Source: Trissonchulus latispiculum
Lineage: Eukaryota > Nematoda > Enoplea > Enoplida > Ironidae
Assembly (NCBI GenBank): GCA_030248195.1
Contig: JASAND010018011.1
Span: 1 to 64,000, forward strand
DNA: 64,000 bases
Direction of reading: 5' to 3'
Below the pieces are notes generated by a model. The model was given only the letters and a program-made list of their open reading frames with translations, did not search any database and was not told where the DNA came from. How positions within the stretch are numbered: position 1 is the stretch's first letter; every line of letters begins with the position of its first letter. A program made the position numbers and the translations under genes. This document shows, one piece after another, positions 1,351 to 36,199 of the stretch.

Positions 1351-1352
1351 AT

Positions 1353-1535
1353 ACAAGTAATAAAAATGCTCCTCCGGAGCATGAAAAAGTAATATGGGTA
1401 GTGGTGAGGTTGTAAAATCAAGAGAGGACTAGTCTTAAAAATGCTTAATATGGGGCTAGGTTCAAAAAAAGAAGAGGACTAGGTTGTGGGCGAATTAATA
1501 TGGGCACAGCTTCGCCGAGCAACCCATATTCGCGG
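1353..1535 (+). repeat. Left arm of the 183-bp inverted repeat, copy 1
   Basis: Identical over 183 bp to the reverse complement of 1939-2121. It carries a small terminal hairpin (ATGCTCC, three-base loop, GGAGCAT) and about two and a half copies of a ~62-bp subrepeat with the words AATATGGG and GAGGACTAGGTT. The unique spacer between the arms (1536-1938) contains TATACGTA runs. Confidence 0.9.
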
Positions 1536-1938
1536 ACTGAAAAAGTTATATATATATACGTATTTTTATACGTACCAGTGTTCAGATTTAGTTACGGTAC
1601 GTAAATAATATACGACTATGATAAACGAGTTTTAGTGGAAGCAAACATTTCTTTCGATAAAATCTTAATATTTAACTACTGAGCGTTTTAACCATTTATA
1701 AGAAAAGTATATATTTCAACAATAACTTCAGGATCAGGACTCTCTCCGACGATCTTCTATTTCTATTCAACCGTTAGCGTTACAATCATAGCCTTGGTTT
1801 TTTCTCGTTGCTTGTCGTAGTCCAGCACAACCAAAATATATACTATATAGTTTACGTATATATAACTGCTGGAATTGTAATTATTGACTGACATTAATTG
1901 CTTTGTATATGGCAATCGCCATTGCGAAGCGTGAAAGC

Positions 1939-2121
1939 CCGCGAATATGGGTTGCTCGGCGAAGCTGTGCCCATATTAATTCGCCCACAACCTAGTCCTC
2001 TTCTTTTTTTGAACCTAGCCCCATATTAAGCATTTTTAAGACTAGTCCTCTCTTGATTTTACAACCTCACCACTACCCATATTACTTTTTCATGCTCCGG
2101 AGGAGCATTTTTATTACTTGT
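1939..2121 (-). repeat. Right arm of the 183-bp inverted repeat, copy 1
   Basis: Perfect reverse complement of 1353-1535. Past its end a short stretch (about 2122-2146, ending AAAGGTTCC) is also conserved after the corresponding arms of copies 2 and 3. The element therefore continues rightward into the satellite array and does not end at this arm. Confidence 0.9.
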
Positions 2122-2199
2122 CCTTCTGTCATTTTAAAGGTTCCCTTTCCAGCAGTGAGCTAACGCAGATAAGGAGCTTGAACAATGCAATAGGCAGGG

Positions 2200-5100
2200 C
2201 AAATGTGAGCAAATTGGCTTTCATTTGATACCAAACATGACCACTTTTGAAGATTTTAATTTTTGACCCACGCTATCGCGCCCCTGCATAATATGTATGC
2301 TCCTGAAGGCATATCATGTATATCTTTCAACAGTAGCAAGCAAGCCAACCACAGCGCTCCACAGCCACTTTGAGCATGCAGTTCTATGACAAAAGTTGCT
2401 CAGCTCGCTTAGGGCTTTCATTTGGTACCAAATTTAACCACTTTTGAAAAATTTCATTTTTGACCGAAAATCGCCTAAGTCCCCACCCCACCCCACCACA
2501 GCACTCTACAGCCACTTTGAGCATGCAGTTCTATGACAAAGGATGCTCAGCTCGCTTAGGGCTTTCATTTGGTACCAAATTTGACCACTTTTGAAAATTT
2601 TCATTTTTGCCCCACACCGGACCCACTGTGGGTGGGGCACCCACCCACAGGTCGGTGGGGCCACTTTTTGTGGGTGGCATAATGACAAAAGTTGATCGCC
2701 TCGCCAAGGACTTTCATTTGATACCAAACTTGACCACTTTTGAAGACTTTCATTTTTGACCCACACCGGACCCACTGTGGGTGGCACACCCACCCACAGG
2801 TCGGTGGGGCCACTTTTTGTAGGTGGTATAATAACAAAAGTTGATCGCCTCGCCAAGGGCTTTCATTTGACACCAAACTTGACCACTTTTGAAGACTTTC
2901 ATTTTTGACCCACACCGGACCCACAGTGGGTGGGGCACCCACCCACAGGTCGGTGGGGCCAGTTTTTGTGGGTGGTATAATGACAAAAGTTGATCGCCTC
3001 GCCAAGGGCTTTCATTTGACACCAAACTTGACCACTTTTGAAAATTTTCATTTTTGACCGAAAATCGCCTGAGTCCCCACCCCACACCACCACAGCACTC
3101 CACAGCCACTTTGAGCATGCAGTTCTATGACAAAAGTTGCTCAGCTCGCTTAGGGCTTTCATTTGGTACCAAATTTAACCACTTGAAAAATTTCATTTTT
3201 GACCGAAAATCGCCTAAGTCCCCACCCCACCCCACCACAGCAGTCTACAGCCACTTTGAGCATGCAGTTCTATGACAAAAGATGCTCAGCTCGCTTAGGG
3301 CTTTGATTTGGAACCAAATTTGGCCACTTTTGAAAATTTTCATTTTTGACCGAAAATCGCCTAAGTCCCCACCCCACCCCACCACAGCACTCTACAGCCA
3401 CTTTGAGCATGCAGTTCTATGACAAAGGATGCTCAGCTCGCTTAGGGCTTTCATTTGGTACCAAATTTGACCACTTTTGAAAATTTTCATTTTTGCCCCA
3501 CACCGGACCCACTGTGGGTGGGGCACCCACCCACAGGTCGGTGGGGCCACTTTTTGTGGGTGGCATAATGACAAAAGTTGATCGCCTCGCCAAGGGCTTT
3601 CATTTGACACCAAACTTGACCACTTTTGAAGACTTTCATTTTTGACCCACACCGGACCCACTGTGGGTGGCACACCCACCCACAGGTCGGTGGGGCCAGT
3701 TTTTGTGGGTGGTATAATGACAAAAGTTGATCGCCTCGCCAAGGGCTTTCATTTGACACCAAACTTGACCACTTTTGAAAATTTTCATTTTTGACCGAAA
3801 ATCGCCTGAGTCCCCACCCCACACCACCACAGCACTCCACAGCCACTTTGAGCATGCAGTTCTATGACAAAAGTTGCTCAGCTCGCTTAGGGCTTTCATT
3901 TGGTACCAAATTTGACCACTTTTGAAAATTTTCATTTTTGCCCCACACCGGACCCACTGTGGGTGGGGCACCCACCCACAGGTCGGTGGGCCACTTTTTG
4001 TGGGTGGCATAATGACAAAAGTTGATCGCCTCGCCAAGGGCTTTCATTTGATACCAAACTTGACCACTTTTGAAGACTTTCATTTTTGACCCACACCGGA
4101 CCCACTGTGGGTGGCGCACCCACCCATAGGTCGGTCGGGTCACTTTTTGGAGGTGGTATAATGACAAAAGTTGATCGCCTCGCCAAGGGCTTTCATTTGA
4201 CACCAAACTTGACCACTTTTGAAGACTTTCATTTTTGACCCACACCGGTCCCACAGAGGGTGGGGCACCCACCCACAGGTCGGTGGGGCCACTTTTGGAG
4301 GTGGTATAATGACAAAAGTTGATCGCCTCGCCAAGGGCTTTCATTTGACACCAAACTTGACCACTTTTGAAGACTTTCATTTTTGACCCACACCGGACCC
4401 ACAGTGGGTGGGGCACCCACCCACAGGTCGGTGGGGCCACTTTTTGTGGGTGGCATAATGACAAAAGTTGATCGCCTCGCCAAGGACTTTCATTTGATAC
4501 CAAACTTGACCACTTTTGAAGACTTTCATTTTTGACCCACACCGGACCCACAGTGGGTGGGGCACCCACCCACAGGTCGGTGGGGCCAGTTTTTGTGGGT
4601 GGTATAATGACAAAAGTTGATCGCCTCGCCAAGGGCTTTCATTTGACACCAAACTTGACCACTTTTGAAAATTTTCATTTTTGACCGAAAATCGCCTGAG
4701 TCCCCACCCCACACCACCACAGCACTCCACAGCCACTTTGAGCATGCAGTTCTATGACAAAAGTTGCTCAGCTCGCTTAGGGCTTTCCTTTGGTACCAAA
4801 TTTGACCACATTTGAAAATTTTCATTTTTGCCCCACACCGGACCCACTGTGGGTGGGGCACCCACCCACAGGTCGGTGGGCCACTTTTTGTGGGTGGCAT
4901 AATGACAAAAGTTGATCGCCTCGCCAAGGGCTTTCATTTGATACCAAACTTGACCACTTTTGAAGACTTTCATTTTTGACCCACACCGGACCCACTGTGG
5001 GTGGCGCACCCACCCATAGGTCGGTCGGGTCACTTTTTGGAGGTGGTATAATGACAAAAGTTGATCGCCTCGCCAAGGGCTTTCATTTGACACCAAACTT

Positions 5101-5600
5101 GACCACTTTTGAAGACTTTCATTTTTGACCCACACCGGTCCCACAGAGGGTGGGGCACCCACCCACAGGTCGGTGGGGCCACTTTTTGGAGGTGGTATAA
5201 TGACAAAAGTTGATCGCCTCGCCAAGGGCTTTCATTTGACACCAAACTTGACCACTTTTGAAGACTTTCATTTTTGACCCACACCGGACCCACAGTGGGT
5301 GGGGCACCCACCCACAGGTCGGTGGGGCCACTTTTTGTGGGTGGCATAATGACAAAAGTTGATCGCCTCGCCAAGGACTTTCATTTGATACCAAACTTGA
5401 TCACTTTTGAAGACTTTCATTTTTGACCCACACCGGACCCACAGTGGGGGGGCACCCACCCACAGGTCGGTGGGGCCACTTTTTGTGGGTGGCATAATGA
5501 CAAAAGTTGATCGCCTCGCCAAGGGCTTTCATTTGATACCAAACTTGACCACTTTTGAAGACTTTCATTTTTGACCCACACCGGACCCGCTGTGGGTGGG
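2200..5600 (+). repeat. Satellite array of ~148-bp monomers with an 890-bp higher-order repeat
   Basis: About 22 head-to-tail monomers of 146-149 bp. Type A carries the words GACAAAAGTTGATCGCC and a pair of GTGGGTGG/CCACCCAC blocks. Type B carries GCTCAGCTCGCTTAGG and CCACCCCACACCACCAC. Both share a core around CTTTCATTTG...ACCACTTTTGAA. Six monomers form a higher-order unit: 3487-4376 repeats almost exactly as 4377-5266 (shift 890 bp). Many long open frames run through the array on the minus strand, but they change frame with each monomer and are products of the repeat, not genes. Confidence 0.95.
2270..2297 (+). repeat. Remnant of a 3' terminal hairpin inside the array
   Basis: The words GCTATCGCGCCCC and GCATAAT are the loop and right half of the terminal hairpin at 6319-6352. 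They interrupt the first monomer of the array, as if the end of another copy had been joined here. Confidence 0.5.
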
Positions 5601-6352
5601 CGCTGTGGGTCAGGGGTCACATCCACCGACCTCAGCAGTATGCTCATCGTTTTCAGCGACCCCGATTTACTATATATGGGTACCACCCCTAGGCCGAAAA
5701 ACGCCATTTTTAGTGACTTTTAGGCCATTTCTAGAAAAAGTGGGACTTAGAAACTTTTCGCCAAAACAGGTGAAAAAAAGCAAAGTTTGGGCCCATCTCC
5801 TGAAAGCTCCAGAGCGAAATTAAAAAATCCCCCTCGTTACATTCCGCGCATAGTCCGAAATATTCAAAAAAACAAACCAAACCGATCTAGCTGCTAACCT
5901 GTGAAAAAAAGTCGATCACAACCGAAGTGCCAAAATAGCGAAAGTCCGACTTTGAGGCCTTGGCACAGAGCCAAAATTGGCCAGGTGCCAAAATAACCAA
6001 AAAAAGGTTGCATGGGAGGACCATGCCTACCAACATATAATAGTAGTATTGGGCCAAAATGCCCATATCGTTCCAACACTGCGCTGACATAAGCACTTCT
6101 GAAAAGCGTTATTAACCGAGAAAAAAAAACAAACGCACGGTAACTCCCGCCTAGTGCAAAATTTCGAAGTTCGGAATTTTAACCAAAAGTATGGTGGTAC
6201 TTGTAGTACTGCTCGAGTACTTTACGATGGTAACATTTTTACCCCTCCCGGGCCTCTAATTAGCTGGCACCAGGCCAACACTGTCTCCAGGGGGCCGCGC
6301 AGACGCCTTTATACCCATATTATGTAGGGGCGCTATCGCGCCCCTACATAAT
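5600..6352 (+). repeat. 3' module of composite element, copy 1
   Basis: Conserved block beginning near CAGTATGCTCATCG...CAGCGACCCCGATTTACTA. It is shared with 13010-13710, 34020-35390, 36200-36765 and, less closely, 39560-40166. It always follows a tandem array and always leads into CATATTA plus a hairpin. Confidence 0.85.
6319..6352. repeat. Terminal hairpin, copy 1
   Basis: Perfect inverted repeat with a 15-bp stem (ATTATGTAGGGGCGC) and a four-base loop (TATC). Equivalent hairpins lie at 36731-36763 and 40139-40164, with different stem bases that still pair. Confidence 0.9.
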
Positions 6353-7488
6353 AGTCAGGTTTCCAAAAAAAGAACCGGTGACAAAGTTCCCAAAAAAAGA
6401 ACCAGTGCCAGATCTCCCAGGTACTTCGACCGTTTCGAGCCAAATTTGGCGCATAATAAGTAGAAGACCTTAGTACTATAAATATATCAGTTTGGATTAT
6501 ATAGCTTATCTCGTGAAGCCAGGGCGCCGGCTAGAAGACTACCACCCCAAAACCACCCTCTTTTTTTGGCTTTTTTTGGGAACGGATTCCCAAAAAAACT
6601 AACCAGTTCAGACTTTGCAAAAATAGGTCACAGCAGCCTCCGCAATTGTTTTTCTGGTGATATTAACGCGGTTTTAGAACGTTTTACCCCAAAAAACACA
6701 GTAATAACTTATATTTGGAATCTTTGAGGTGATTTGACTGGCTCAGACAGCCTGAACCTGGTCTGGACCCAAGTTGGTCTCTTGAAGTACTGGACTTGTC
6801 TAAAAACTGATATTTACAGCATAATTCACGCTGGAAACGCGTCTTCCTAGTTATAAAACGGTTCTACGCAAAATTTCAGTTGTTTTGGTAGAGTTCTGGT
6901 GATAGTCCCCCAACCCCAACTTGGCCTAGGTCCCCGGGGTCCAAGTTGGGGATGTGCACTGTTGTTACAGGTAAGTCCTCAGAAATTTTATAGTGTACTT
7001 AAAGAAATTACACGTTTAAAGGGTGCCAAATATGCTATAAACGTCGGCTTAAGGCGTTTGGCGCTCAAGGAAAAGTTATCGGAACTTACACCTCCAGACT
7101 CACCATGTCATGGTGGTCCAAGGTAGTCTAAGTGGGCTGCCGTGCCCAGGCTAGACCCTTGGGCTCCACCAAGTACCGTGTAGTACGTATTGATCGGTTA
7201 TGGGCTATATATAGGTAATATTAGATTTGCCCTGCCTCTTCTCAGCCAGTAGTAAAGAGGGTGGTTTTTTATTTGGGAACGCTGGTTCTTTTTTTGGGAA
7301 TCGTTCCCAAAAAACCACTAAAATTTTTTAATTACTCAGGATTGCCATGGAGGCAGGCTAGGGGCTATAGGTGGGCATATGTGTCGGACCGAGTCCTATG
7401 CACATGCACCCTAGTTGGGCTGTCCCACGTCACCCTGCAAAAGTTTGGAGCAAAAAACTGTCAACTGGTTTTTTTGGGAACCTGACTA
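6352..7488 (+). mobile_element. MITE family B
   Basis: Ends are TAGTCAGGTT...CCAAAAAAAGAACC on the left and the matching GG...TTTTTTTGGGAACCTGACTATA on the right. It is about 1.14 kb long with no coding frame. Extra internal copies of the G(G)GAAC/A-tract word occur near 6580 and 7275-7310. It is inserted right at the hairpin of the composite element. A truncated relative starts near 41797. Confidence 0.75.
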
Positions 7489-7733
7489 TACCTACTTTTT
7501 GGTCCAACCTTCCAAAAATTTGCCAAAAGTTTGGACCGATGTAACTTTTGACTGGGTTGGGCTAGAAAAGTTTTGCAAATATCTGCAATGATGGCAAGTC
7601 TTCCTCTTTGCACACAGCAAAAATTAGACCGATCCGATGCACGGTTAGACTGGCACATTGCCAAACGTGGCGGGGAAAAACCCACTTTGGGGGAAAAACC
7701 CACCCAAATTTTTTGAAATTTTTTACCAGCTTA
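7489..7733 (-). mobile_element. MITE family A, continuation after the composite element
   Basis: Reverse complement of the region around 16440-16660 of another family-A copy: CCTACTTTTTGGTCCAACC, then the GGCGGGGAAAAACCCAC words. It joins with 1169-1350 to form one interrupted copy. Confidence 0.8.
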
Positions 7734-11177: not shown

Positions 11178-11885
11178 ACAAGAATAAAAATGCTCCGGTG
11201 GAGCATGAAAAATGCAATATGGGTGACATTCGGTTGTAAATGGACAGAGGACTAGGTTTTAAAACGTTAATATGGGAGGGGCAGGTTGTAAATGCCAGGA
11301 GGACTAGGTTAAAAGCGCACTAATATGGACCAGCTTCGCTGAACAACCCATATTCGTGAAAATAGTCCAGAGTTTCTATCGGCTGCTGCTTGCTGTTGCT
11401 ATTGGCAGTTCTTCGGAAAATTGTACGACTTTTGTCAGCATGGCCAGCAAGTACATATTGTGGCCATGCTCCTTATTATACAACTTAATAATACACGTCC
11501 ATAATGTCAACTGCTTTTCGCATCAACTTAATACAAGATTATGCGCTAACACTGCAGAAAAAACACCTTGAACACCTTTCTAGCAGAACTGCATTGTTTA
11601 TTTGGAATACGTAAGCTTTAATATTTCACAATCGTCCCGCTTGCTTTGAAAACTGAAGAATGTAGATCTTACTCGTATGTCATGTGGAGTGGAGCATGAG
11701 TGACCGCGAATATGGGTTGTTCAGCGAAGCTGGTCCATATTAGTGCGCTTTTAACCTAGTCCTCCTTCCATTTACAACCTGCCCCTCCCATATTAACGTT
11801 TTAAAACCTAGTCCTCTGTCCATTTACAACCGAATGTCACCCATATTGCATTTTTCATGCTCCACCGGAGCATTTTTATTCTTGT
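11178..11885. repeat. 5' inverted-repeat module, copy 2
   Basis: Arms 11178-11356 and 11707-11885 (179 bp) are reverse complements with only about two differences. The terminal hairpin is ATGCTCC-GGT-GGAGCAT: same stem as copy 1, different loop. The words AATATGGG and GAGGACTAGGTT repeat at ~62-bp spacing. The spacer between the arms differs from copy 1. Confidence 0.88.
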
Positions 11886-12059
11886 CCTATTTCATTTTTA
11901 AGGTTCTCAGTAAATAGCAAAAACGTTAAAGCTGTGTGAAAGAAACTTTAAAAGTTCCGCCAATCATTAATAGTCAACCGAAAGTACAGAACAAAGAAGC
12001 TTGAAAAGTTCCAAGTTCTTCCTTTTTCTCTATTTTGACAGAAATCCAACATCCAGTAT

Positions 12060-12720
12060 CCATGGGCTGCAATAGTTTTAGTTACTGTATATAGCATATA
12101 GCACTCTACTGCAGCGCAAACAAATGCAAACTTTACTGTCAGTGAAGGAAACTCATAAAACACGATTTGCAATGATCTTCCGTACTTGCATACAAATTTC
12201 GGACGATTGCAACTTTCCTGTAGCTAGTTATAGGCCGTGCTGTGCTTCAGCAGCACTCGACTGCAGCCCAACCAGATGCAAACTTTACTGTCAGTGAAGG
12301 AAACTCATACGGCACGATTTGCAATGCTCTGCCGCACTTGTGTGCAAAATTTCCGACGATTGCAACTCATCTGTAGCTAGTTATAGTCCGTGCTGTACTT
12401 CAGCAGCACTCTACTGCAGCGCAAACAAATGCAAACTTTACTGTTGGTGAAGGAAACTCATAAAACACGATTTGCAATGCTCTGCCGCACTTGTGTGCAA
12501 AATTTCCGACGATTGCAAGTTTTCTGTAGTTAGTTATAGGGCGTGCTGTACTTCAGCAGCACTCCACTGCAGCGCAACCAGATGCAAACTTTACTGCCAG
12601 TGAGGGAAATTCATACGGCATGGTTTGCAATGCTGTTCTGCACATGTGTGCAAAATTTCAGACGACTGCAAGTTTTCTGTAGTTAGTTACAGGCCGTGCT
12701 GGTACACATAGCAACATCGT
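12060..12720 (+). repeat. Tandem array of ~152-bp monomers
   Basis: Four imperfect monomers. The word GCAAACTTTACTG starts at about 12126, 12278, 12431 and 12584, giving a period of 152-153 bp. Each unit also carries GCAGCACTC...CTGCAGCGCAA and GACGATTGCAA. It is unlike the 148-bp monomers of copy 1 except in length. Confidence 0.9.
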
Positions 12721-13009
12721 AATAAGTATACGAAACGTATCTATAATAGTTTGTCATGTCCTAAACTATCTGTATGCCGAATTTCAAATACCAGTGACGA
12801 ATGAATAACTTGTTATCGACGGTGCTGTGTTTGGATCAGCACATACAGCACGGTGGAAGCTAGAGAGTGCCCCAACTAACATAGCTACAGTTCCCCCTTA
12901 CTACAGACATGATTTTCGCCAAGTTTCATATGTTCAGGCGTTTACAGTAAGTCTACAGACAGCGTGCTATGGTTGTTGCATAGCAGTACAGCACGATAGC
13001 AGCACCGCA

Positions 13010-13710
13010 CAGAGCTGCGACTATGCTCATCGTGTTCAGCGACCCCGATAACCTTTATATGCGTCCCACTATGGCCCAAAACAGCATATTTAGGCCTATT
13101 TTTGACTATTTCCTGTAGAGTTAGTTGTTGGGACTTAGAAATTTTCCGAAAATGGCTATTTGGCCGGACCAACTTTGGGCCGGCCGCCAGAACGATCCTG
13201 GCCAGATCGCCCTCGTTAGGACATATAAACCCTTCCGTAGATCCTTATGCAACAAACCACGTCTCTCTAGCGTCTTCCCTGAGTCGTGTAGCTTTGACAA
13301 AATATTGGTCATTTTTGGCCATTTTAGCGCCAAGTCCACTTTTGGCCGGCCGTACAGGTGGCTGGCCGGGCCGGGCAGCGAAATAATATCAAAAAGGTTC
13401 ACTTTCGGGGTATATATGTTCAGAAAAACCTAACTTCACCTGCTGAAAATGCCCAGATCGTTCTAACACTGCGACAGAAAATTGCATTTTTCCAAGCGTG
13501 ACTTACACGGAAAAAAAACAAACGGACCTAACTTGCCCGGAAGCGAAAATTTTCAAAGTTGGAAATTTTGACCAAAACTTTTTGCGACTTGTAGTACTCG
13601 TCGTGTAGATTCCAACGATACCAAAATTGTCCAGTTTCGTTGAGTATTTAGCTGGCACGGAGCTCGAACGGGTCTCCAAGGGCCGCACTGAGCCTTTTAC
13701 ACCCATATTA
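13010..13710 (+). repeat. 3' module of composite element, copy 2
   Basis: Shares with 5600-6352 the blocks ATGCTCATCGT, TTCAGCGACCCCGAT, GGGACTTAGAAA, ATGCCCAGATCGTTC and the closing CTTTTACACCCATATTA. It contains the GGCCGGCCGCC and GGCCGGCCGTACAGG words, which are absent from copy 1. Confidence 0.75.
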
Positions 13711-19795: not shown

Positions 19796-21389
19796 AGAAG
19801 AAGAAGAAAGATTTACTCCGAAGAAATTCAACAAGGACGGTACATCGATTTACTCAAGTATAAGCTTAATCATCCATAACACAATACACGTGCAACATAC
19901 TAAAGACAGTTACAAACTGAGACATCAGAGCAACATACTTTGTCTTCCTCCATCTACCATTTATATACAATGAGATGGCGCAAAAGTAAGTGCCTGCTTT
20001 CAAATAAAAGCTCTTTAAAGGTCTTTATATCTTTAGCTAAGACAATATTTTCTGGGAGAGAATTCCATGAGTTTACTATTCTGTTAGTGAAAAAATACTT
20101 TCTAATATCTAAAGAAAATTTTGGTTTTTCCAATCTAAATAGATGACCCCGTGTATTACGTACATTAGCTGATAACGAAAACAGAGACTGAAAAGATATT
20201 CCAACATGACCATAAACAATCTTATACACCAAAGTCAAATCAGTCATCAGTCTATTTAGTTCTAACGAAACCAGACCCAAGATTTCGCACTGATCTTTAT
20301 ATGATAAATGTCTAAATTCATAGAAAGAGTTACAAAACTTCTTCTGAACCTTTTCAATTGTTTCAATATCTTGTTTTAGCCAAGGATTCCAAATCTCAGA
20401 TGCATACGATAGTATTGGTAAAACATAAGCTTTATATAGTCTTATCCTCACAGATAAGTCATCCGAAGTAAAACTTCGTAACATAATAGACAAAACTGAT
20501 AAAGCCTTGTTCGCAATACGGTTTATGTGAACTCCAAACTTTAAATTTTGACTAACCCACACACCTAAATCTGAGCATCCATCAGAATTCAGCAAAGTGT
20601 TTTCATTAAAAGTGTAAGGGGTCTTTGCGTTTTGTCTTCCAATATACAAAACAAAGGACTTAGTCCATGAGACCGATAGTTGCCAATTTTCAACCCATTC
20701 AAAAAACCCTTGTAGCAAAGAACTTAATATTAAATCTCTATCAGTACCAACTGCAAACAATTTCATATCATCGGCATAGGCAACACAATTCACAGAACCT
20801 AATAGGTTTAAAATTTCATTAATATATATTAAAAACAAAGTCGGACCAACAACTGAACCTTGAGGAACCCCGCTAGTTACATCAACAAAAGTTGAATGGG
20901 CATCGTGCAGCTTAACTCTCTGACGTCTACCACTTACAAAAGAAGATACTACATTTAAGACAACCCCTTGAAATCCATAAGCTTGCAATCTCACTCTAAG
21001 TTTAGGAAGTGAAATTGAGTTGAAAGCTTTTTTCAAATCAATATATGCCACATCAGTACATAAACGATTATCTAAAGCAGTAGTCCATTTATCTATATAT
21101 ACAAAATAACAGATTCGTAACAGTCGATTTACCCTTACAGAAACCATGCTGAGCAGGAGCAACTATATTATTATCAAAACAATGTGATCGTAAAGTATCA
21201 TTTAAAATCCAATCCAACGGTCTAGCTGCACCACATGTCAACGATACATCCCTAGTTATCCGTTAGTTGGCTCCTAGACCCTTTATTTTTAAAAATTGGC
21301 ACTACATTTGCATCTTTCCAATCTTGTGGTATATATCCAGTGTTACAAGCAAAATCGGTAATAAACCATATCGGAAAAGCAAGTTCAGC
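19796..21389 (-). mobile_element. LINE family 1, copy A (5'-truncated)
   Basis: Codes for the reverse transcriptase half and C-terminus of a jockey-superfamily non-LTR retrotransposon. A 402-residue frame (21162 to 19954) holds the RT motifs: AFNS near residue 46, GVPQG near 98 and the catalytic YADD at 129-132. The first ~20 residues are out of frame because of a 4-bp TATA insertion near 21095; the upstream RT part (to 21389) lies in another frame. The 3' UTR ends in a (TTC)n tail at about 19800. Compared with copy C the frame around YADD is intact, because A lacks the TATA insertion found there. It joins copy B head to head at 21389. Confidence 0.85.
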
Positions 21390-22979
21390 TGTCATTCATG
21401 AATCTCAGGTTATTTGTAATACTTTCAGTTTTGATGTTGTGACTGTTTTTGAAGCCTTGTCTAAGATTAAGCCTACTATGGCTAGAGGTCCTGATGAAAT
21501 TCCTTATATTTTTTATAAAAAATTTGCCGCTGAACTTGCTTTTCCGATATGGTTTATTACCGATTTTGCTTGTAACACTGGATATATACCACAAGATTGG
21601 AAAGATGCAAATGTAGTGCCAATTTTTAAAAATAAAGGGTCTAGGAGCCAACCGGATAACTATAGGGATGTATCGTTGACATGTGGTGCAGCTAGACCGT
21701 TAGATTGGATTTTAAATGATACTTTACGATCACATTGTTTTGATAATAATATAGTGGCTCCTGCTCAGCATGGTTTCTGTAAGGGTAAATCGACTGTTAC
21801 GAATCTGTTATTTTGTATAGATAAATGGACTACTGCTTTAGATAATCGTTTATGTACTGATGTGGCATATATTGATTTAAAAAAAGCTTTCAACTCAATT
21901 TCACTTCCTAAACTTAGAGTGAGATTGCAAGCTTATGGATTTCAAGGGGTTGTTTTAAATGTAGTATCTTCTTTTGTAAGTGGTAGACGTCAGAGAGTTA
22001 AGCTGCACGATGCCCATTCAAATTTTGTTGATGTAACTAGCGGGGTTCCTCAAGGTTCAGTTGTTGGTCCGACTTTGTTTTTAATATATATTAATGAAAT
22101 TTCAAACCTATTAGGTTCTGTGAATTGTGTTGCCTATGCCGATGATATGAAATTGTTTGCAGTTGGTATATACTGATAGAGATTTAATATTAAGTTCTTT
22201 GCTACAAGGGTTTTTTGAATGGGTTGAAAATTGGCAACTATCGGTCTCATGGACTAAGTCCTTTGTTTTGTATATTGGAAGACAAAACGCAAAGACCCCT
22301 TACACTTTTAATGAAAACACTTTGCTGAATTCTGATGGATGCTCAGATTTAGGTGTGTGGGTTAGTCAAAATTTAAAGTTTGGAGTTCACATAAACCGTA
22401 TTGCGAACAAGGCTTTATCAGTTTTGTCTATTATGTTACGAAGTTTTACTTCGGATGACTTATCTGTGAGGATACGACTATATAAAGCTTATGTTTTACC
22501 AATACTATCGTATGCATCTGAGATTTGGAACCCTTGGCTAAAACAAGATATTGAAACAATCGAAAAGGTTCAGAAGAAGTTTTGTAACTCTTTCTATGAA
22601 TTTAGACATTTATCATATAAAGATCAGTGCGAAATCTTGGGTCTGGTTTCGTTAGAACTAAATAGACTGATGACTGATTTGACTTTGGTGTATAAGATTG
22701 TTTATGGTCATGTTGGAATATCTTTTCAGTCTCTGTTTTCGTTATCAGCTAATGTACGTAATACACGGGGTCATCTGTTTAGATTGGAAAAACCAAAATT
22801 TTCTTTAGATATTAGAAAGTATTTTTTCACTAACAGAATAGTAAACTCATGGAATTCTCTACCAGAAAATATTGTCTTAGCTAAAGATATGAAGACCTTT
22901 AAAGAGCTTTTATTTGAAAGCAGGCACTTACTTTTGCGCCATCTCATTGTATATAAATGGTAGATTGAGGAAGACAAAG
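21389..22979 (+). mobile_element. LINE family 1, copy B (5'-truncated, frameshifted)
   Basis: Begins inside the ORF upstream of the RT domain (at IHESQV) and runs through the RT. The frame 21340-22176 ends just after YADDMKLF because of a 4-bp TATA insertion near 22168. The remainder of the protein (22157-22963) is in the next frame and ends with the usual C-terminal region and YKW stop. The 3' UTR is cut at 22979 by a TA-target element, and its last part reappears at 31410-31565. Nearly identical to copy C. Confidence 0.85.
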
Positions 22980-23617
22980 TACAGTACAGCTCAAAAAAAC
23001 TATTTTTTGCGAAGTTCGCCTTTTTTGCGAACTTCGCGAACTTCGTGAAATTTCGCCAAATTTCGCGAACTTCGCGAAGAATTTTTCGCGATGTTTCGCG
23101 AAGTTTTTTCAGATAGCTAATTGAGGGGTTTTCTCCATAGTAAAAAACAGAAAGTTGAGTGGGCAAGCAAAATTTCAATTTTGTTTTGATTCAAATCCAA
23201 ACTTCGCGAATTTCGTGAACTTCTCCAAATTTCGCGAACTTCGCGAAGGATTTTCGCGAAGTTATTAGTTATTGATAGTGAAAAGCCCGGTAGCCTGTTT
23301 GCAACCCTCTTCCAGGAATTCGGATGTTATCTGGAATGAATGAAAGCAGCATTGAATGTACGTACGCAACCAGATACGCTTTATATAATTAAACCAACTA
23401 ACATTTTGTTGTAGACCTTTATAATCCGCTACAGTTATGATAATAGCGCGTTAATAGTTCGTGTAACGTGTCCCTCCTTGTAATTACAGGTGCACCGGGG
23501 CCGCGCCGCCACTACCGGGGAAGGAGCAGGGGCCGGGACCTCACCGTGGCCCCGGCCGGGGCTACCCTAGCCTCGATTCCGGGGCCGGGCCTGGAAACTG
23601 GGGATCCAAACCAAAAA
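21389..23617 (+). repeat. Left arm of a 2.2-kb inverted duplication
   Basis: Contains LINE copy B, the end of the CAGTACAGCTC element and a GC-rich hAT end. It matches 28284-30510 in reverse with very few differences, including the shared TATA insertion in the LINE frame. The arms are separated by 4.7 kb. Confidence 0.85.
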
Positions 23618-23989
23618 TTTTCAAAAATTTTCTGGAAAATTTAAAATTTGTAATATATAATTTTTGATATACAAACGTTATTATCTTTACATGCTTAAGG
23701 TTGTGGTATCCTTTCGTGCACTGCTTTTGTGGTGATTGTTTTGAAACGCTATAACTTTCGCAATTTCGGCAGTAGGAAAGAGACTTATATATACATCGTT
23801 TTAGAGCTTATAACCTGTAAATTCGGATTAGCTTACGAAACTAGCAAAATTTTTTGCAAAAGTGACATCTAAAAAGCTGAATATATATAGATCAAAAATT
23901 TTTGAATAGTGATTTCTCAAAACTGTAGAATCGGGCTAAATTTCTCTTGTGCCATGATATTATGAAGGACATGTGGTAGGGATGGGCGC

Positions 23990-24683
23990 CAGTGTTTTTT
24001 TTGCTCAAAAACGCGTGTAATTACACACTTTTTTCTGGAAAATAGCAAAAAAATTTTGGCGACTGTGTAACGTTACACCAAAATTTTGGACAAATTTTAC
24101 CAAACGGTCGGAACTTTTTCCAATGCTCATTCATTTGTTTCCACATATTTACCGTTTCTGGGGGGCTTCGCTCCCCAGACCCCCTTTTCCATTATATTTG
24201 CTATATTTGTTCGTTCTTGTATTAAAACAAAATTTTGTTTTAACACACAACACACAACACACAAAACACACCAAAATTTTTCAGCTTATGAAGCAAATTT
24301 AACTGGTTCCTTGCCAAGTTTTGTGCTACAGGAGGCCTTTCGAAAGGCCTCTATGCTCCTTCGGTCTCGGTGCACTGGTGTTTTCCTTCGTTCTATCAAG
24401 TCAAAACCAATAAATGCAAATCATCGATGTAACTGCTCAATTTTTTAATTTTGTCAATCTGATTTGGTGAAACTCTAAATATTGCTGTAAATAAGATGTT
24501 AAAATTTTACTTATAATTTTTCAACGGAAAATTTTGTTAACTATAAAATTGTGTACATGTGTTAAGCAAAACGCGCGTAAATCTGGAATTTTTAGGTAGT
24601 TACACACTTTTTTCTGAAAAATAGCAAAAAATTTTGGAGAGGTGTGTAACGTTACACATAGACGTCGGCGAAAAAAAACACTG
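23990..24683 (+). mobile_element. hAT element (CAGTGTTTTTTTT ends) nested in a hAT
   Basis: Ends CAGTGTTTTTTTTGC and CGGCGAAAAAAAACACTG. The 8-bp ATGGGCGC, which is part of the host element's own end, is repeated exactly at 23982-23989 and 24684-24691. Subterminal words GTGTAACGTTACAC and AATAGCAAAAAATTTTGG are inverted. The dispersed G/C hairpin (24156-24184) lies inside. No transposase. Confidence 0.9.
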
Positions 24684-24845
24684 ATGGGCGCGGAAAAAAG
24701 GACTGAAAAAAAAGGTTTTTTCCGTTTATTTCAATTTTTTCCGATGGGGTGGAAAAAATAGTAAAATATTCCTAGTGTTATTTTAACGATTTTTACTGCG
24801 GAAAATAATGTTTTCTGAACTTTTCCTGTGATTTCGCACTATTTA

Positions 24846-26087
24846 TAGCAAGGTTAATAAAAAAAAATCAAAAATCGAATTTTTGCTGCCATTTTCGCAA
24901 ATAAAGTCCGATCGAAATAATTTTGGTATGTATCAACTGGTAATGATCCCCTCTATATACATATGGTGCAAATTTCATGCCGATAGCTCTTGTGTAGCGA
25001 GAGTAATAAAAAATTTTTGTGATTTTTTTTGTTAACGAATTCACAAAAAAAATCACGGGTTCGCAAAAAAAATCACCCATGGATCTAATCTCAGGATACA
25101 GCTATGAAAATTTTCTTTTCATGTATGAATAGAGCATAGTCCATAGAGTTATTATGTAAAAAAATTTGGACCCCGAAGTTTCTTTTGGGTAGGCTTAACT
25201 TCGAATTTCGGTGCTCGGCCCCCGGGTCCAAAGTGGCTACCATGACCAATTTTCTTGACACTGTTTATTGACTCCAGGAAGCTAGGAATCCACTTGTTTG
25301 GTGTTCATCCTCGTAAGCACAGCGCAAACAATTTGGCGTAGTAATTTCGCATCTGGACTGGTCACGTGACTTGGCCCAGGGTCACGTGACCTTGGTCAGG
25401 GTCACGTGACTGGTAAAATTCAAGGTCCAGGAAGCCTAAAAACTCGCTATATAGGTTTTTGGGGCGTAGAATTCAAATTTGGCATCTGTTTTTATGTAGC
25501 TTTAGCCCACATATGGATCCAGACCTCCCCAGGGGTCCGGAGGGTCGGGGTCATGCCTAACAGCCAGCCAGTGGGTCAGACGGGTTGAGGTAATAAAAAC
25601 ATGTGCTATATAGGTTTTCGGGGTCGTAGAGCTAGAATTTGGTGTTAGTTTTGCTGTAGCAGCCATCCCGCACCTTTTTACAAAAAGTTGTGGGTGATTT
25701 TTTTTTGGAAAAATTTGGCAAAAAAAATAACCCACCGTGGGCCAGCAGAGGTCATGGCAAGGTATCCAATATATGGCTAGATAGTGCAGAGTGTGGACAT
25801 GTTACATGCATAATATGGGTTAGCTAAGCAAAGTCCATAGTGAGTAATAGCAAAATTTTCAATTTTGGTCCGGAGTTGTCCGAAGGTCGGTTTTGGGGTG
25901 GGTCGACTATTTTGGGTACCCTAGTCGAAGGAGTTGGGCCTCGGCGGTCAAACTTACATATGTTAAGGTTGGGACCTCTGGCTATTACCGTGCAAAAAAT
26001 TTTCCAGCTGCGGCTTGTTACTAATCCTGTAGGTGGGTGATTTTTTTTTGCGAATTTTCGGGGTGATTTTTTTTGTTAACCTTGCTA
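24846..26087 (+). mobile_element. MITE family D, nested in a hAT
   Basis: Ends TAGCAAGGTTAA and TTAACCTTGCTA, flanked by TA, with A-tracts and TCAC just inside. The uninterrupted hAT at 34386 reads CTATTTACAACT here, giving the empty site and a TA duplication. The element is 1242 bp, and extra A-tract/ATCACCC words lie inside near 25025-25080 and 25690-25735. Confidence 0.85.
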
Positions 26088-26741
26088 TACAACGTTTTCC
26101 TTGGGTCATAGTATAGGTGGGGGTATGCTAAATCTGACCAAATTGTATTTGGGTTTTTTCGAAGCATCGGAAAAAAATGGAAAAATATTCGAGACATGTT
26201 CTGAAAGTTAATTTATGGAATCAGAACATTAATAAACTATCAAAAACACTGTTTTATGAATTAATATGACAATATCCATGAATTGGAGCTAATTCTGGGA
26301 TTTAAGATTTTTTGCCATTGAATGTGTATATGGTTGCGTAACTCAGGTACTCTTAACAATTCTATGTCTAATAGTGGAATGTTCAGCCAAAACCTTTTAA
26401 AACGTCTGGTATTCTTTACTTTACGAGGTGTATTACCTACGAAAACCACAGACTAGGTCTAGCAGAACCGTCAAGGTATACAGAAGTCACCTGTAGTTTA
26501 TTCTACAGTATTGTCTGCTGAAAAAATTAACCTGTGATCAATACTAAAACCTTTGTAACCGCTTGTGTAAGTGCGCACTACACGGTGGGGCTATTAAATA
26601 TGTTGAAAACGGCTTTTATGCATGCAGAAACATGAAATAACACAAATTTTCGCACATTGGTGAATTTTGAGGTGACCGGAAAAAAAGGTAAAAAATGGAA
26701 AAAACCGGAAAAAAGGTTTTTTCCGGAAAAAACCAACCCTA

Positions 26742-27508
26742 ACATGGGACGAGGGACATTTTTAAATTTGGCGCAATTCTCCAGAAAATCCGGCAAATGA
26801 CAAACGATGACACGAAATTTCGCAACTTTGTATCCAGTTTTCTCGCAACTGGAAGATTTTAGCCCAAACCAAAAACTGTCCTTCGGCAATAGTGCAAATT
26901 TTCATCCAGCCAAAAATCACGCGAATCCCTTGCGTAGTTTTTGAGAAATCTATGTTCAAAACAAAATAATCGCAGTTTTGCCAAATTGGTTTTTCGGCCA
27001 AATATCTAGCCTAAAACAACGCATCCCAACTAATATCATTGACAAAATCTGCAATTAGACAGTGGATCGATTCAGTATATTATGTGAAAATTGTCTAAGA
27101 TTAGGCAGTAATTTTGAAAAAACTGATTTTCTCGAAAATGGCCATCTTTGGACCCCAAAATCGTTTTTGGCTTGCGGTGGGGAAAAACAATGCTGACCCT
27201 GTTCTCGTGGAATTGTATTGGATTTTCAGGACCGCTTATGTGTCAGCTTTCATGTGACAATGCGGTATTTCAAAATTTTAAAATCGATGTTTTCCAAAAT
27301 ACACTTTTTGACCCAAAATTTCGGCAATGCGAATCTAGCAAAAGTGACTAAAAATAGCAGAATAGTAAGGTTTAGTCTGAGCTGAATCCAACAATATAAA
27401 GTTTTCTTGGCTACGATTTATATTACCCCTGCGACGAATTTTTAAACGATTCCCCTGTTTAGCTGGTTTTTGGCTAGTTTACACTGGCTGCGGTTTGTTA
27501 TTTTTCGA
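26742..27508. other. Noncoding sequence shared with 52840-53390
   Basis: No gene. The stretch around 26936-27010 (TTTTTGAGAAATC...CAAAACAAAATAATCGCAGTTTTGCC) recurs at 53238-53310 and, inverted, at 53030-53085. A matching relation holds between 23790-23960 and 52695-52840. The interior of the element around 23488-28412 and that of the foldback element at 52191-54029 are therefore related. Confidence 0.5.
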
Positions 27509-27875
27509 CTGGCTTATTTTTAGGCCAAAATTTATGGGGGGGGGGGGCGATATGGGGGGCTCAAAGTTGCCCCCCCCCCACGATGGGGGGGGGTTCACCA
27601 AAAATGGGGGGGCATATTTTTGGAAAAAATTTTGCAAATTTTTACGTTTTTCTGTGTAAAAATTGCCAAAACTCGCTAAAAAATGACTGATTTTAGGTGT
27701 TTTTTACGTTAAAATAGCGAAAATTTCGTTAAAATTTTTGAAAATTTAGGGTAAAAATGGTGAAATCTGGCAATTTTTTAAATTATGGGGGGAAGGCAAA
27801 AATTAATGGGGGGAACCTCGAATGGGGGGGGAAGGTTGCCGAGTGGGCCCCCCACCCCCAGTAAAAATAAGCCAG
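27509..27875 (-). mobile_element. G-run element, copy 2 (5-bp target duplication)
   Basis: Ends CTGGCTTATTTTT and AAAAATAAGCCAG. TTCGA is repeated at 27504-27508 and 27876-27880. It is 367 bp with several blocks of 7-12 G or C. Same family as 14065-14481, in opposite orientation. Confidence 0.8.
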
Positions 27876-28283
27876 TTCGAAAACATCGCTTTTCAAATTT
27901 TATACGTACATACCGCATAGGTCACATGAAAGCAGGCACGTAAGTGGTCCTGAAAATCTAAAATCTAAATCTTTCAAAACCTAAAAATCGGCTTTTTTCA
28001 TGAATTTTAATTTTTTCAAATTTCTTTGAGAGGAACGTAGGTGCGAGGAACTAGCCGTTTGGTGGAAAATTAGCAAATGTCCCAAACATCAGCTAACTTC
28101 GTCAAGAAGTGCGATAGTTATTCAAGTTTTTCGATTTCCAAATATCTTTGCCGCTTTTCAAATTTGACTGGCTATTACTCACAACTCTCTCAATGGAAAA
28201 ATTTTTCAATTGGATTTTCAGGACCACTTAAGACCGCTTTCATGTGACCTATGTGGTATGTAAGTATTTCAAAATTTGAAAAT

Positions 28284-30510
28284 TTTCGGTTTGGATCCCC
28301 AGTTTCCAGGCCCGGCCCCGGAATCGAGGCTAGGGTAGCCCCGGCCGGGGCCACGGTGAGGTCCCGGCCCCTGCTCCTTCCCCGGTAGTGGCGGCGCGGC
28401 CCCGGTGCACCTGTAATTACAAGGAGGGACACGTTACACGAACTATTAACGCGCTATTATCATAACTGTAGCGGATTATAAAGGTCTACAACAAAATGTT
28501 AGTTGGTTTAATTATATAAAGCGTATCTGGTTGCGTACGTACATTCAATGCTGCTTTCATTCATTCCAGATAACATCCGAATTCCTGGAAGAGGGTTGCA
28601 AACAGGCTACCGGGCTTTTCACTATCAATAACTAATAACTTCGCGAAAATCCTTCGCGAAGTTCGCGAAATTTGGAGAAGTTCACGAAATTCGCGAAGTT
28701 TGGATTTGAATCAAAACAAAATTGAAATTTTGCTTGCCCACTCAACTTTCTGTTTTTTACTATGGAGAAAACCCCTCAATTAGCTATCTGAAAAAACTTC
28801 GCGAAACATCGCGAAAAATTCTTCGCGAAGTTCGCGAAATTTGGCGAAATTTCACGAAGTTCGCAAAAAAGGCGAACTTCGCAAAAAATAGTTTTTTTTT
28901 AGCTGTACTGTACTTTGTCTTCCTCAATCTACCATTTATATACAATGAGATGGCGCAAAAGTAAGTGCCTGCTTTCAAATAAAAGCTCTTTAAAGGTCTT
29001 CATATCTTTAGCTAAGACAATATTTTCTGGTAGAGAATTCCATGAGTTTACTATTCTGTTAGTGAAAAAATACTTTCTAATATCTAAAGAAAATTTTGGT
29101 TTTTCCAATCTAAACAGATGACCCCGTGTATTACGTACATTAGCTGATAACGAAAACAGAGACTGAAAAGATATTCCAACATGACCATAAACAATCTTAT
29201 ACACCAAAGTCAAATCAGTCATCAGTCTATTTAGTTCTAACGAAACCAGACCCAAGATTTCGCACTGATCTTTATATGATAAATGTCTAAATTCATAGAA
29301 AGAGTTACAAAACTTCTTCTGAACCTTTTCGATTGTTTCAATATCTTGTTTTAGCCAAGGGTTCCAAATCTCAGATGCATACGATAGTATTGGTAAAACA
29401 TAAGCTTTATATAGTCGTATCCTCACAGATAAGTCATCCGAAGTAAAACTTCGTAACATAATAGACAAAACTGATAAAGCCTTGTTCGCAATACGGTTTA
29501 TGTGAACTCCAAACTTTAAATTTTGACTAACCCACACACCTAAATCTGAGCATCCATCAGAATTCAGCAAAGTGTTTTCATTAAAAGTGTAAGGGGTCTT
29601 TGCGTTTTGTCTTCCAATATACAAAACAAAGGACTTAGTCCATGAGACCGATAGTTGCCAATTTTCAACCCATTCAAAAAACCCTTGTAGCAAAGAACTT
29701 AATATTAAATCTCTATCAGTATATACCAACTGCAAACAATTTCATATCATCGGCATAGGCAACACAATTCACAGAACCTAATAGGTTTGAAATTTCATTA
29801 ATATATATTAAAAACAAAGTCGGACCAACAACTGAACCTTGAGGAACCCCGCTAGTTACATCAACAAAATTTGAATGGGCATCGTGCAGCTTAACTCTCT
29901 GACGTCTACCACTTACAAAAGAAGATACTACATTTAAAACAACCCCTTGAAATCCATAAGCTTGCAATCTCACTCTAAGTTTAGGAAGTGAAATTGAGTT
30001 GAAAGCTTTTTTTAAATCAATATATGCCACATCAGTACATAAACGATTATCTAAAGCAGTAGTCCATTTATCTATACAAAATAACAGATTCGTAACAGTC
30101 GATTTACCCTTACAGAAACCATGCTGAGCAGGAGCCACTATATTATTATCAAAACAATGTGATCGTAAAGTATCATTTAAAATCCAATCTAACGGTCTAG
30201 CTGCACCACATGTCAACGATACATCCCTATAGTTATCCGGTTGGCTCCTAGACCCTTTATTTTTAAAAATTGGCACTACATTTGCATCTTTCCAATCTTG
30301 TGGTATATATCCAGTGTTACAAGCAAAATCGGTAATAAACCATATCGGAAAAGCAAGTTCAGCGGCAAATTTTTTATAAAAAATATAAGGAATTTCATCA
30401 GGACCTCTAGCCATAGTAGGCTTAATCTTAGACAACGCTTCAAAAACAGTCACAACATCAAAACTGAAAGTATTACAAATAACCTGAGATTCATGAATGA
30501 CAGTTGGGTC
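28284..30510 (-). repeat. Right arm of the 2.2-kb inverted duplication
   Basis: Reverse complement of 21389-23617. It contains the end of the hAT, a copy of the CAGTACAGCTC element end (about 28430-28908) and most of LINE copy C. Confidence 0.85.
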
Positions 30511-31130
30511 TCTCCCATTATCTAAAGTGTATACAGAAGAGAAAAATTCATTGAGCACTTTACTTTTGTCATGATCAGTTCTAGCTCTTGTCCCGTCATA
30601 TCTCTCTAATACAGGAACACCAGGTTTATTTTTAAGTTTAGAATTCGCGTACTTAAAAAACTTTCTAGAATTTGGATTAGTTGCAAGACTTTTTTCATAT
30701 TCACTTAAAAATTTGTTTAACTGCTCAGAGAATAATCTATTTAAAGCTTCATATTGTCGCTTAGACGCATAATCCATAGAACGATTCCAAGTTTTAAAAG
30801 CAGCAATCTTGTTTCCATACAACTTTTTCAGAGAGTTTGGCCATGGCAGTGCATTCTTATTACACTTCACAATAGGTACATACACTTCAATTAAAGAATG
30901 GACAAAATTCTTGAACGTACTCCAAAAACATTCAAGTGGATTACCAACCCCATTATAAGCATTCCAGAAAAACATGTGCCAATCTACATTACACAGTCTT
31001 TGACTAATATTAATACAATCCATGGAGAAAAAATTGCGGAAATAGCTTATTTCCTCTTTACATTGTACCTTCAAATCAAAAAGCAGGGAAGCATGGTCCG
31101 AATTTCCCAAAGGAGTATTTATTAAATTAA
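28909..31130 (-). mobile_element. LINE family 1, copy C (5'-truncated at the endonuclease)
   Basis: A 464-residue frame (31110 to 29716) begins with the endonuclease motif GNSDH, so the element is cut within the last part of the apurinic-type endonuclease. It continues through the linker and reverse transcriptase: AFNS near residue 369, GVPQG near 421 and YADD at 452-455. A 4-bp TATA insertion near 29722 ends the frame; the last 268 codons (29735 to 28929) follow in another frame. The 5' side is a short run of TTTAATT words. It is the longest LINE family 1 copy here and non-functional as read. Confidence 0.88.
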
Positions 31131-31409
31131 AATTTAATTTAATTAAAATTAAAATTAAATTTGGAGAAGTTCACGAAATTCGCGAAGTTTGGATTTGAAT
31201 CAAAACAAAATTGAAATTTTGCTTGCCCACTCAACTTTCTGTTTTTTACTATGGAGAAAACCCCTCAATTAGCTATCTGAAAAAACTTCGCGAAACATCG
31301 CGAAAAATTCTTCGCGAAGTTCGCGAAATTTGGCGAAATTTCACGAAGTTCGCGAAGTTCGCAAAAAAGGCGAACTTCGCAAAAAATAAAGTTTTTTTGA
31401 GCTGTACTG

Positions 31410-34010: not shown

Positions 34011-34385
34011 ACCCGCAGGCCCTGGGGGTCAGGGGTCACATCCACCGACCTCAGCAGTATGCTCATCGTTTTCAGCGACCCCGATTTACTATATATGGGT
34101 ACCACCCCAAAGCCGAAAAACGCCATTTTTAGTGACTTTTAGGCCATTTCTTGTAAAAGTGGGACTTAGAAACTTTTCGCCAAAACAGGTGAAAAAATGC
34201 AAAGTTTGGGCCTATATCCTGAAAGCTACAGAGGGAAATTAAAAAATCCCCCTCGTTACTTTGTGTGCATTGGCCGAAATATTCAAATAAAATAAACCAA
34301 ACCGATCTAGCTGCTAGCCTGTGAAAAAAGTCCACCACAACCGAAGTGCCAAAATAGCGAAAGTCCGACTTTGGGGCCTTGGCAC

Positions 34386-36190: not shown

Positions 36191-36199
36191 GCGAGATAC

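What the first reader, a model, noticed from the sequence alone, without database searches (positions are those of the whole stretch)
1351..6352. A ~5-kb satellite array is internal cargo of one mobile element, proved by a split MITE
The family-A MITE stops at GAAAATGA (about 1350) and resumes at TACCTACTTTTTGG (7489). Uninterrupted copies read GAAAATGACACCTAC across this point. Everything between, apart from the family-B MITE at its right edge, is a 5' module with 183-bp perfect inverted repeats, about 22 monomers of ~148 bp and a 3' module ending in a 15-bp hairpin. The satellite therefore arrived as part of a transposable unit. The TA borders, asymmetric ends and terminal hairpin fit no superfamily I can name with confidence.
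Basis: seen in the sequence. Interest (0 to 1): 0.9.

Follow-up and report, generated by a model that had tools for sequence, protein, structure and literature searches.

The report
Satellite-carrying rolling-circle transposon with foldback head
In this likely animal genome a block of about 149-letter repeats sits inside one mobile DNA element whose end occurs thousands of times, and which likely spreads by rolling-circle copying with proteins supplied by related elements: one way that satellite DNA can be scattered through chromosomes.

Summary
1353-6351 is one 4,999-bp unit: 5' module with 186-bp inverted arms, an array with 23 monomer anchors, 3' module ending in a 14-15 bp hairpin. Its 3' end occurs 4,593 times in the 734-Mb genome (0 in the reversed control). 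On all 10 contigs where both modules were among the scored matches, order and strand agree. One copy sits in a repeat whose empty paralogues show an exact join, with no target duplication. The ends fit the Helitron2 group, as a non-autonomous Helentron (HINE): 11-bp subterminal inverted repeat, 3' palindrome after it, AT|T preference. A second in-window family has another subterminal repeat, changed at both ends together. The genome holds 147 Rep-domain matches; at one locus helicase and endonuclease matches, both under the cut-offs, follow. No autonomous partner with these ends was found. Satellite-carrying HINEs are published in oyster, so the kind is known. Less usual are the long 5' foldback arms, which differ about threefold less than their loop and co-vary within copies, and the mosaic array here with monomers of the second family. 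Rolling-circle movement is inferred, not shown.

The parts
1353..6351 (+). complete non-autonomous element (HINE-like, here family 1), 4,999 bp
   Evidence: same ends ACAAGTAATA...CCCTACATAA in 9 of 9 loci read in full (chosen because both modules matched); 4,593 3' ends genome-wide
1353..1538 (+). outer arm of the 5' foldback (186 bp)
   Evidence: 99.5% inverted match to 1936-2121; 0.76% mean divergence among 28 copies
1366..1382 (+). small 5' hairpin ATGCTCC-TCC-GGAGCAT
   Evidence: read directly in the sequence
1390..1400 (+). 5' subterminal inverted repeat TAATATGGGTA
   Evidence: 11-bp perfect match to the reverse complement of 6312-6322
1539..1935 (+). loop of the 5' foldback
   Evidence: 2.26% mean divergence among 28 copies, about three times the arms; inverted in 1 of 30 loci, L004
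1936..2121 (-). inner arm of the 5' foldback (186 bp)
2216..5600 (+). satellite array, 23 monomer anchors; mosaic of type A (149 bp) and type B (about 147 bp) monomers
   Evidence: 7 of 22 scored intervals are type B
5601..6351 (+). 3' module
   Evidence: 40 of 40 scored matches at 97-100% identity; anchor-to-end distance 828-829 bp in 9 of 9
6312..6322 (-). 3' subterminal inverted repeat TACCCATATTA
6320..6351 (+). terminal 3' hairpin, 14-bp stem and 4-nt loop
1167..1350 (+). left part of the split family-A MITE (host sequence)
7490..7685 (+). right part of the split family-A MITE (host sequence)
6354..7486 (.). family-B MITE (ends GTCAGGTT...AACCTGAC, TA duplication), a separate insertion at the element's 3' border
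   Evidence: read directly in the sequence

Best explanation
The unit at 1353-6351 is one copy of a repeated element that carries the satellite array as internal cargo, and it is likely a non-autonomous Helentron (HINE, Helitron2 group) that is predicted to move by rolling-circle copying with a Rep/helicase supplied in trans. Shown: common ends, module order, number of ends, an exact empty-site join without target duplication at one locus, subterminal inverted repeats that change together at both ends between two families, target preference, monomer variants shared between loci. Inferred: a Helentron Rep/helicase of this genome nicks at the ends and displaces one strand; the 3' subterminal repeat and hairpin end the copying; the single strand is joined into an AT|T site; the array is copied passively with the rest and changes in length by unequal exchange or slippage. 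The long 5' arms would extrude as a hairpin on the single strand, which would explain why the two arms of a copy stay alike.
For: Cargo: on 10 of 10 contigs with scored matches to both modules, order and strand agree; 9 of these were read in full, 2,283-4,999 bp, 5-23 anchors. 30 of 30 5' modules are followed and 29 of 30 3' modules preceded by direct monomers. Of 55 exact 5' ends (T, A or C before them) on contigs 1-1391, 21 have an exact 3' end within 10 kb, and in 17 of 21 the nearest one is downstream on the same strand, 2.0-5.4 kb away. Movement: 40 of 40 scored candidates match the joined flanks of element L066 straight across the junction, each over nearly the whole 260 bases; 6 of 6 fetched join exactly, with no duplication or loss. 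Type: 11-bp subTIR, in family 2 a different 12-bp pair, again at both ends; 3' hairpin. Target: A at -2 in 24 of 27, T at -1 in 20 of 27, T at +1 in 27 of 30; genome-wide T at +1 in 1,606 of 1,690. Machinery: 147 Helitron_like_N matches, about 92 of them in stop-to-stop frames of 1,000 aa or more, counted by eye. Full head-to-tail junctions 3, tail-to-tail 0.
Against: No autonomous element with these ends was found: flanks of 7 of the 147 Rep matches were read in part, and 0 of 6 Rep matches on contigs 1-1391 have an exact 3' end downstream on their strand (compared by eye). At C16688 the helicase and endonuclease matches are both under Pfam's cut-offs. The 5' subTIR lies 37 nt inside, not the 2-4 nt given for mite HINEs, which also have at least two T at each border (PMC4067079). 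T before the 5' end is 565 of 851 with G left out; both borders are T in 5 of 10 paired loci, and at the exact empty-site locus they are A and A. Only one locus gave an exact empty site: the other seven joined flanks had no scored match. Head-to-tail junctions are few.
Confidence: 0.83

Rival explanations
1. The 5' module alone is a stand-alone TIR MITE or a Mutator-type foldback, and the satellite and 3' module beside it are a separate thing.
For: The 186-bp arms look like terminal inverted repeats; foldbacks with internal tandem repeats are published (Tetris, PMC4079207).
Against: The inner border CTTGT|CCTTCTGTCATTTTAAAGG was found with at most 2 edits in 30 of 30 loci, with satellite within 1.5 kb beyond it (L004 turned round because its loop is inverted; in L002 the first monomer is 1.3 kb away), while the outer flanks differ. 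So only the outer end is an insertion border. No target duplication at L066.
Confidence: 0.06
2. Canonical Helitron (Helitron1) derivative: 5' TC, 3' CTRR, insertion between A and T.
For: 3' hairpin, no target duplication, asymmetric ends.
Against: The ends are ACAAGT...CATAA, with neither TC nor CTRR (these two motifs are recalled; the A|T target is in PMC5148889). The subTIR pair and the T after the 3' end are features of the Helitron2/Helentron group.
Confidence: 0.06
3. The array and the two modules were brought together by local duplication of satellite-rich regions, and spread as segmental duplications rather than as a transposon.
For: Some loci are local duplications: on contig C6473 three 3' ends about 2.02 kb apart share the same flank.
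Against: Outer flanks of the fetched loci differ and in nearly all begin at the same base; 29 of 30 3' ends read CTACATAA. Empty paralogues exist; 4,593 ends.
Confidence: 0.03
4. Assembly artefact: the MITE halves and modules are false joins.
For: Fragmented draft (21,732 contigs) with long repeats, a known hazard.
Against: The same module joins recur on many contigs with different flanks.
Confidence: 0.02

Closest known systems
Cg_HINE elements of Crassostrea gigas (non-autonomous Helentrons; PMC7492417)
   Same: Left flank with subTIR, central satellite-like array of mostly 140-180 bp monomers in fixed orientation, right flank with 3' subTIR and palindrome, no target duplication, T-rich target; the authors likewise could not link them to an autonomous Helentron.
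   Different: There the subTIR is followed by a 7-12 bp complementary repeat 1-12 bp away and a microsatellite; here the complement is part of a 186-bp arm 397 bp away. There monomer cluster and flanks go together consistently (two elements have two consecutive arrays); here one array intermixes monomers of two families.
DINE-1 / HINE of Drosophila and mites (PMC4067079)
   Same: subTIRs of 12-15 bp, 3' palindrome, optional tandem repeats, no target modification, TT or T-rich preference.
   Different: Mite subTIRs lie 2-4 nt from the 5' end, here 37 nt; no long 5' foldback in the passages read.
Helitron2-type FoHeli elements of Fusarium oxysporum (PMC5148889)
   Same: Asymmetric terminal inverted repeats, a hairpin at both termini in FoHeli1 and 2, insertion between TNAT and T (here AT|T).
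   Different: Fungal, with coding elements described; no satellite array in the passages read; different terminal letters.
Tetris foldback of Drosophila virilis (PMC4079207)
   Same: Long inverted repeats together with tandem repeats that seed satellites.
   Different: Its tandem repeats lie inside the TIRs and its complete copies have target duplications; here the array lies outside the arms and no duplication was seen.

Membership tests
Helentron / HINE (non-autonomous) | subTIR of at least 11 bp identical at both ends | tested here: met
   TAATATGGGTA, 11 of 11; family 2 in the same window 12 of 12 with other letters
Helentron / HINE (non-autonomous) | 3' palindrome after the 3' subTIR | tested here: met
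   14-bp stem overlapping the end of the subTIR by 3 bases; 0 of 200 shuffles fold as well
Helentron / HINE (non-autonomous) | no target-site duplication | tested here: met
   exact join in 6 of 6 fetched empty paralogues of one locus; not tested at other loci apart from the window's own, where three bases are unexplained
Helentron / HINE (non-autonomous) | insertion at TT / T-rich target | tested here: inconclusive
   T after the 3' end 1,606 of 1,690; T before the 5' end 565 of 851, G not counted; both T in 5 of 10 pairs
Helentron / HINE (non-autonomous) | no long coding frame of its own | tested here: met
   no frame of 60 aa or more lies within the 5' module; the longest wholly within the 3' module is 69 aa, two of 75 and 96 aa cross the array border, and the longer ones run through the repeats
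Helentron / HINE (non-autonomous) | ends shared with an autonomous Rep/helicase/endonuclease element | tested here: inconclusive
   Rep domains present; no shared ends in the flanks read of 7 of 147 matches
Canonical Helitron1 | 5' TC and 3' CTRR ends (recalled), A|T target | tested here: not met
   ACAAGT...CATAA with T mostly following
TIR (DDE) transposon or MITE, Mutator foldback | symmetric inverted ends and target duplication | tested here: not met
   ends asymmetric, no duplication at one locus
Helentron / HINE (non-autonomous) | rolling-circle transposition | not testable with these tools
   needs a transposition assay or detection of circles or single strands

The most novel reading that the evidence does not exclude
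A subclass of Helentron-type elements has turned the short 5' repeat of HINEs into a long foldback that works as a replication end: the two 186-bp arms are kept alike by hairpin-templated copying of the single-stranded intermediate at each transposition, while satellite arrays are exchanged between element families as interchangeable cargo.
Probability: 0.25. Interest if true: 0.7.

Novelty: new variant of a known kind. Interest (0 to 1): 0.42.

Why it matters
How short satellite arrays get dispersed, and whether transposons seed satellites, is an open question. Here thousands of ends of two sister families are found, copies of both carry related monomers, one array is a mosaic of both families, and the co-varying 5' arms give a sequence record of a single-strand or gene-conversion step. 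That makes both questions testable in one genome.

Tried and rejected
Autonomous partner: read C16875 68200-71700 and 77500-81000, C16688 52000-59600 and 62900-71500 (59601-62899 not read), and 2.7 kb upstream of the Rep matches at C10406, C17284, C7244, C11232 and C20309. No match to the 3' hairpin; only loose matches, searched at up to 4-6 edits, to the 20-base 5' motif, taken as chance. C16688 lies among other tandem repeats, about 150 and 300 bp long, of which about 60 bp resemble this monomer.

Tandem rolling-circle concatemers as a general feature: rejected; only 3 full head-to-tail junctions within 30 bp. The C6473 series is a local duplication with the same flank.

Arrays as strictly shared or strictly homogenised: monomers differ by 9.05% within and 8.44% between arrays (91 of 92 intervals), but the window's mosaic array inflates the first figure. 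Without it the values are 4.20% and 5.11%, so there is some local likeness, and I do not claim that arrays show none.

Ribozyme or other known RNA in the satellite: none at Rfam gathering score; the one window hit is an SRP RNA.

Species by the LINE protein: top hit 34% identical; among the 120 of 1,005 listed few are named, and those are mixed, so not settled.

Arm conservation as proof of selection: not claimed. Loci were chosen by similarity, and gene conversion explains it as well; variable sites 27 of 372 in arms against 52 of 387 in the loop, p 0.006.

Dropped rows: L004 (loop inverted) and L026 (5' end incomplete) left out of the 5' flank and arm counts, L019 (no flank) out of the flank count; C12958, a tenth contig with both modules, not read in full because it starts at the element's edge; L001 and L031 left out, as they are the window.

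Full report
What is there. The window belongs to a 734-Mb assembly of 21,732 contigs. It holds a metazoan-type SRP RNA, so the host is likely an animal; the species was not identified. From 1353 to 6351 there is one 4,999-bp unit: a 769-bp 5' module made of two 186-bp inverted arms around a 397-bp loop, a short spacer, an array with 23 monomer anchors, and a 751-bp 3' module ending in a hairpin. It interrupts a MITE-like repeat that is uninterrupted at two other places in the window. A second MITE sits at its right border with a TA duplication. After that MITE is discounted, the join at this locus still has three bases more than the empty copies, so this locus alone does not prove a clean insertion.

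It is one mobile unit. The 5' module matched in 40 of 40 scored candidates (2,057 in the first look) and the 3' module in 40 of 40 (3,501). Ten contigs are in both lists, the window's among them, and on all ten the modules lie in the same order on the same strand. Nine of these were read in full: same first and last bases, lengths of 2,283-4,999 bp, 5-23 monomer anchors, last anchor to 3' end 828 or 829 bp. In 30 of 30 fetched 5' loci direct-orientation monomers follow, and in 29 of 30 3' loci they precede. All these loci were chosen by similarity. A less biased check used the exact ends listed for contigs 1-1391: of 55 exact 5' ends preceded by T, A or C, 34 have no exact 3' end within 10 kb; of the other 21, 17 have the nearest one downstream on the same strand at 2.0-5.4 kb. 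The 3' end occurs 4,593 times with up to three mismatches and never in the reversed control.

It inserts without target duplication, at least at one locus. The element of L066 lies in a high-copy repeat. Its joined flanks match 40 of 40 scored candidates across the junction, each over nearly all of the 260 bases; the joined flanks of the seven other elements in that query had no scored match. Six paralogues, fetched and aligned, read straight through with no base gained or lost at the join, apart from ambiguity in a run of A. The border context is AT|T: A at -2 in 24 of 27, T at -1 in 20 of 27, T at +1 in 27 of 30. Genome-wide, T follows the exact 3' end in 1,606 of 1,690. T precedes the exact 5' end in 565 of 851; G could not be counted because the inner arm has G there. 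Only 5 of 10 paired loci have T on both sides, and L066 has A on both.

What kind it is. The 5' end holds TAATATGGGTA at 1390-1400 and the 3' end its exact complement at 6312-6322, at the foot of the hairpin. A second family in the window, 38511 to about 40166, begins almost alike but has ATAATATGTGTG at one end and its complement at the other, again before a hairpin; its 3' end occurs 6,259 times. That both ends changed together speaks for a recognised pair. subTIRs of at least 11 bp, a 3' palindrome, optional tandem repeats, no target modification and T-rich targets are what Thomas and colleagues give for Helentrons and HINEs (PMC4067079, passages read). Hairpins at both termini and insertion between TNAT and T are given for Helitron2-type elements of Fusarium (PMC5148889, passages read). 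The genome holds 147 Helitron_like_N matches (150 of 157 candidates scored), about 92 of them in frames of 1,000 aa or more by my count. At C16688 a downstream exon has a Pif1 2B-domain match (19.9 bits, cut-off 23.9), an endonuclease match (25.4, cut-off 27.4) and a ubiquitin hydrolase over its cut-off; the first two are suggestive only. I found no such gene between these ends; flanks of only 7 of the 147 matches were read. The oyster authors met the same gap (PMC7492417: abstract, Results and first part of Discussion read).

The satellite. Over nine arrays, mean monomer divergence is 9.05% within and 8.44% between arrays, but the window's mosaic inflates the first figure; without the window it is 4.20% within and 5.11% between. 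Most variation is thus shared between loci, as expected if arrays were moved as wholes, with some local likeness. The window's array is a mosaic: 7 of 22 scored intervals are type B, the monomer of family 2, against 0 of 72 in the eight other complete copies. In the partial arrays of 58 fetched loci, some of which are the same copies as those eight, 1 of 351 intervals is type B (L032, the best match after the window itself). Family-2 copies in L034 and L056 scored type B only, 1 and 2 intervals, and the in-window one 2 of 2. Identical monomers recur at a shift of six in the window array, so it also grew by block duplication. The oyster paper reports double consecutive arrays, otherwise one monomer cluster per flank pair; intermixing within one array is not described in the parts I read.

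The foldback. In 28 copies the arms differ by 0.76% (outer) and 0.88% (inner) and the loop by 2.26%. In the nine complete copies the values are 0.51%, 0.63% and 3.3%, and the 3' module 1.95%. The two arms of one copy differ by 0.85% against 1.34% when inner arms are shuffled among copies; 0 of 2,000 shuffles reach the observed value. One of 30 loci has the loop inverted (L004). The arms thus co-evolve. Gene conversion between arms, or hairpin-templated copying during transposition, would both do it; these data do not decide. One search for three or more of HINE, Helentron, long inverted repeat, central tandem repeats and foldback listed six papers. In what I read of two of them (PMC7492417, PMC5148889) and in passages of PMC4079207 no such 5' end on a Helentron is described. 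That is a limited search.

Mechanism. Most likely a Helentron Rep/helicase acts in trans on the subTIR pair and the 3' hairpin, displaces a single strand and joins it into AT|T; the satellite is passenger DNA. A role for the 3' hairpin was tested for the Helitron Helraiser (PMC4778049; only the start of the abstract was seen, in the listing, and it breaks off there; that the role is termination is recalled). Everything in this paragraph is inference from anatomy.

Verdict. Satellite-carrying HINEs are published, so the kind is known; the long 5' foldback and the cross-family mosaic array make it a variant worth a follow-up.

Noticed in passing
38511-40166: Second HINE-like family: 12-bp subTIR ATAATATGTGTG at both ends, 3' hairpin, type-B monomers (2.6 copies) plus a 163-bp repeat array; 6,259 3' ends genome-wide.
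   Followed up: partly
31856-36329: Degraded relative of the main element: 86% match to an arm, type-A array 32405-34007, 93% match to half of the 3' module, then further pieces and another 148-bp array 35371-36183.
   Followed up: partly
11178-13607: Third relative, more diverged: 5' end ACAAGAATAAAAATGCTCC, two arm matches of about 76%, a 153-bp array 12100-12701 and weak 3' module matches.
   Followed up: no
19954-31170: Very similar LINE reverse transcriptase frames at 19954-21162 (-), 21256-22963 (+) and 28929-31170 (-), an inverted arrangement; likeness judged by eye from the translations.
   Followed up: no
49761-50060: Metazoan SRP RNA, 250.7 bits, full length of the model.
   Followed up: no
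L074-L076 (C16688): Tandem repeats of about 150 and 300 bp around a Helentron gene share about 60 bp (75-83% alike) with this satellite, in opposite orientation to the gene: possibly a wider satellite superfamily tied to these elements.
   Followed up: partly
L034, L038, L043, L056: Four of 30 3' ends are followed within about 10 bp by another member of family 1 or 2; three (L034, L043, L056) in direct orientation, L038 ambiguous because only an arm and the palindromic end match. L038, L043 and L056 lack the start of the second member.
   Followed up: partly
L004: Loop of the 5' foldback inverted relative to its flanks, as expected from recombination between the arms.
   Followed up: no
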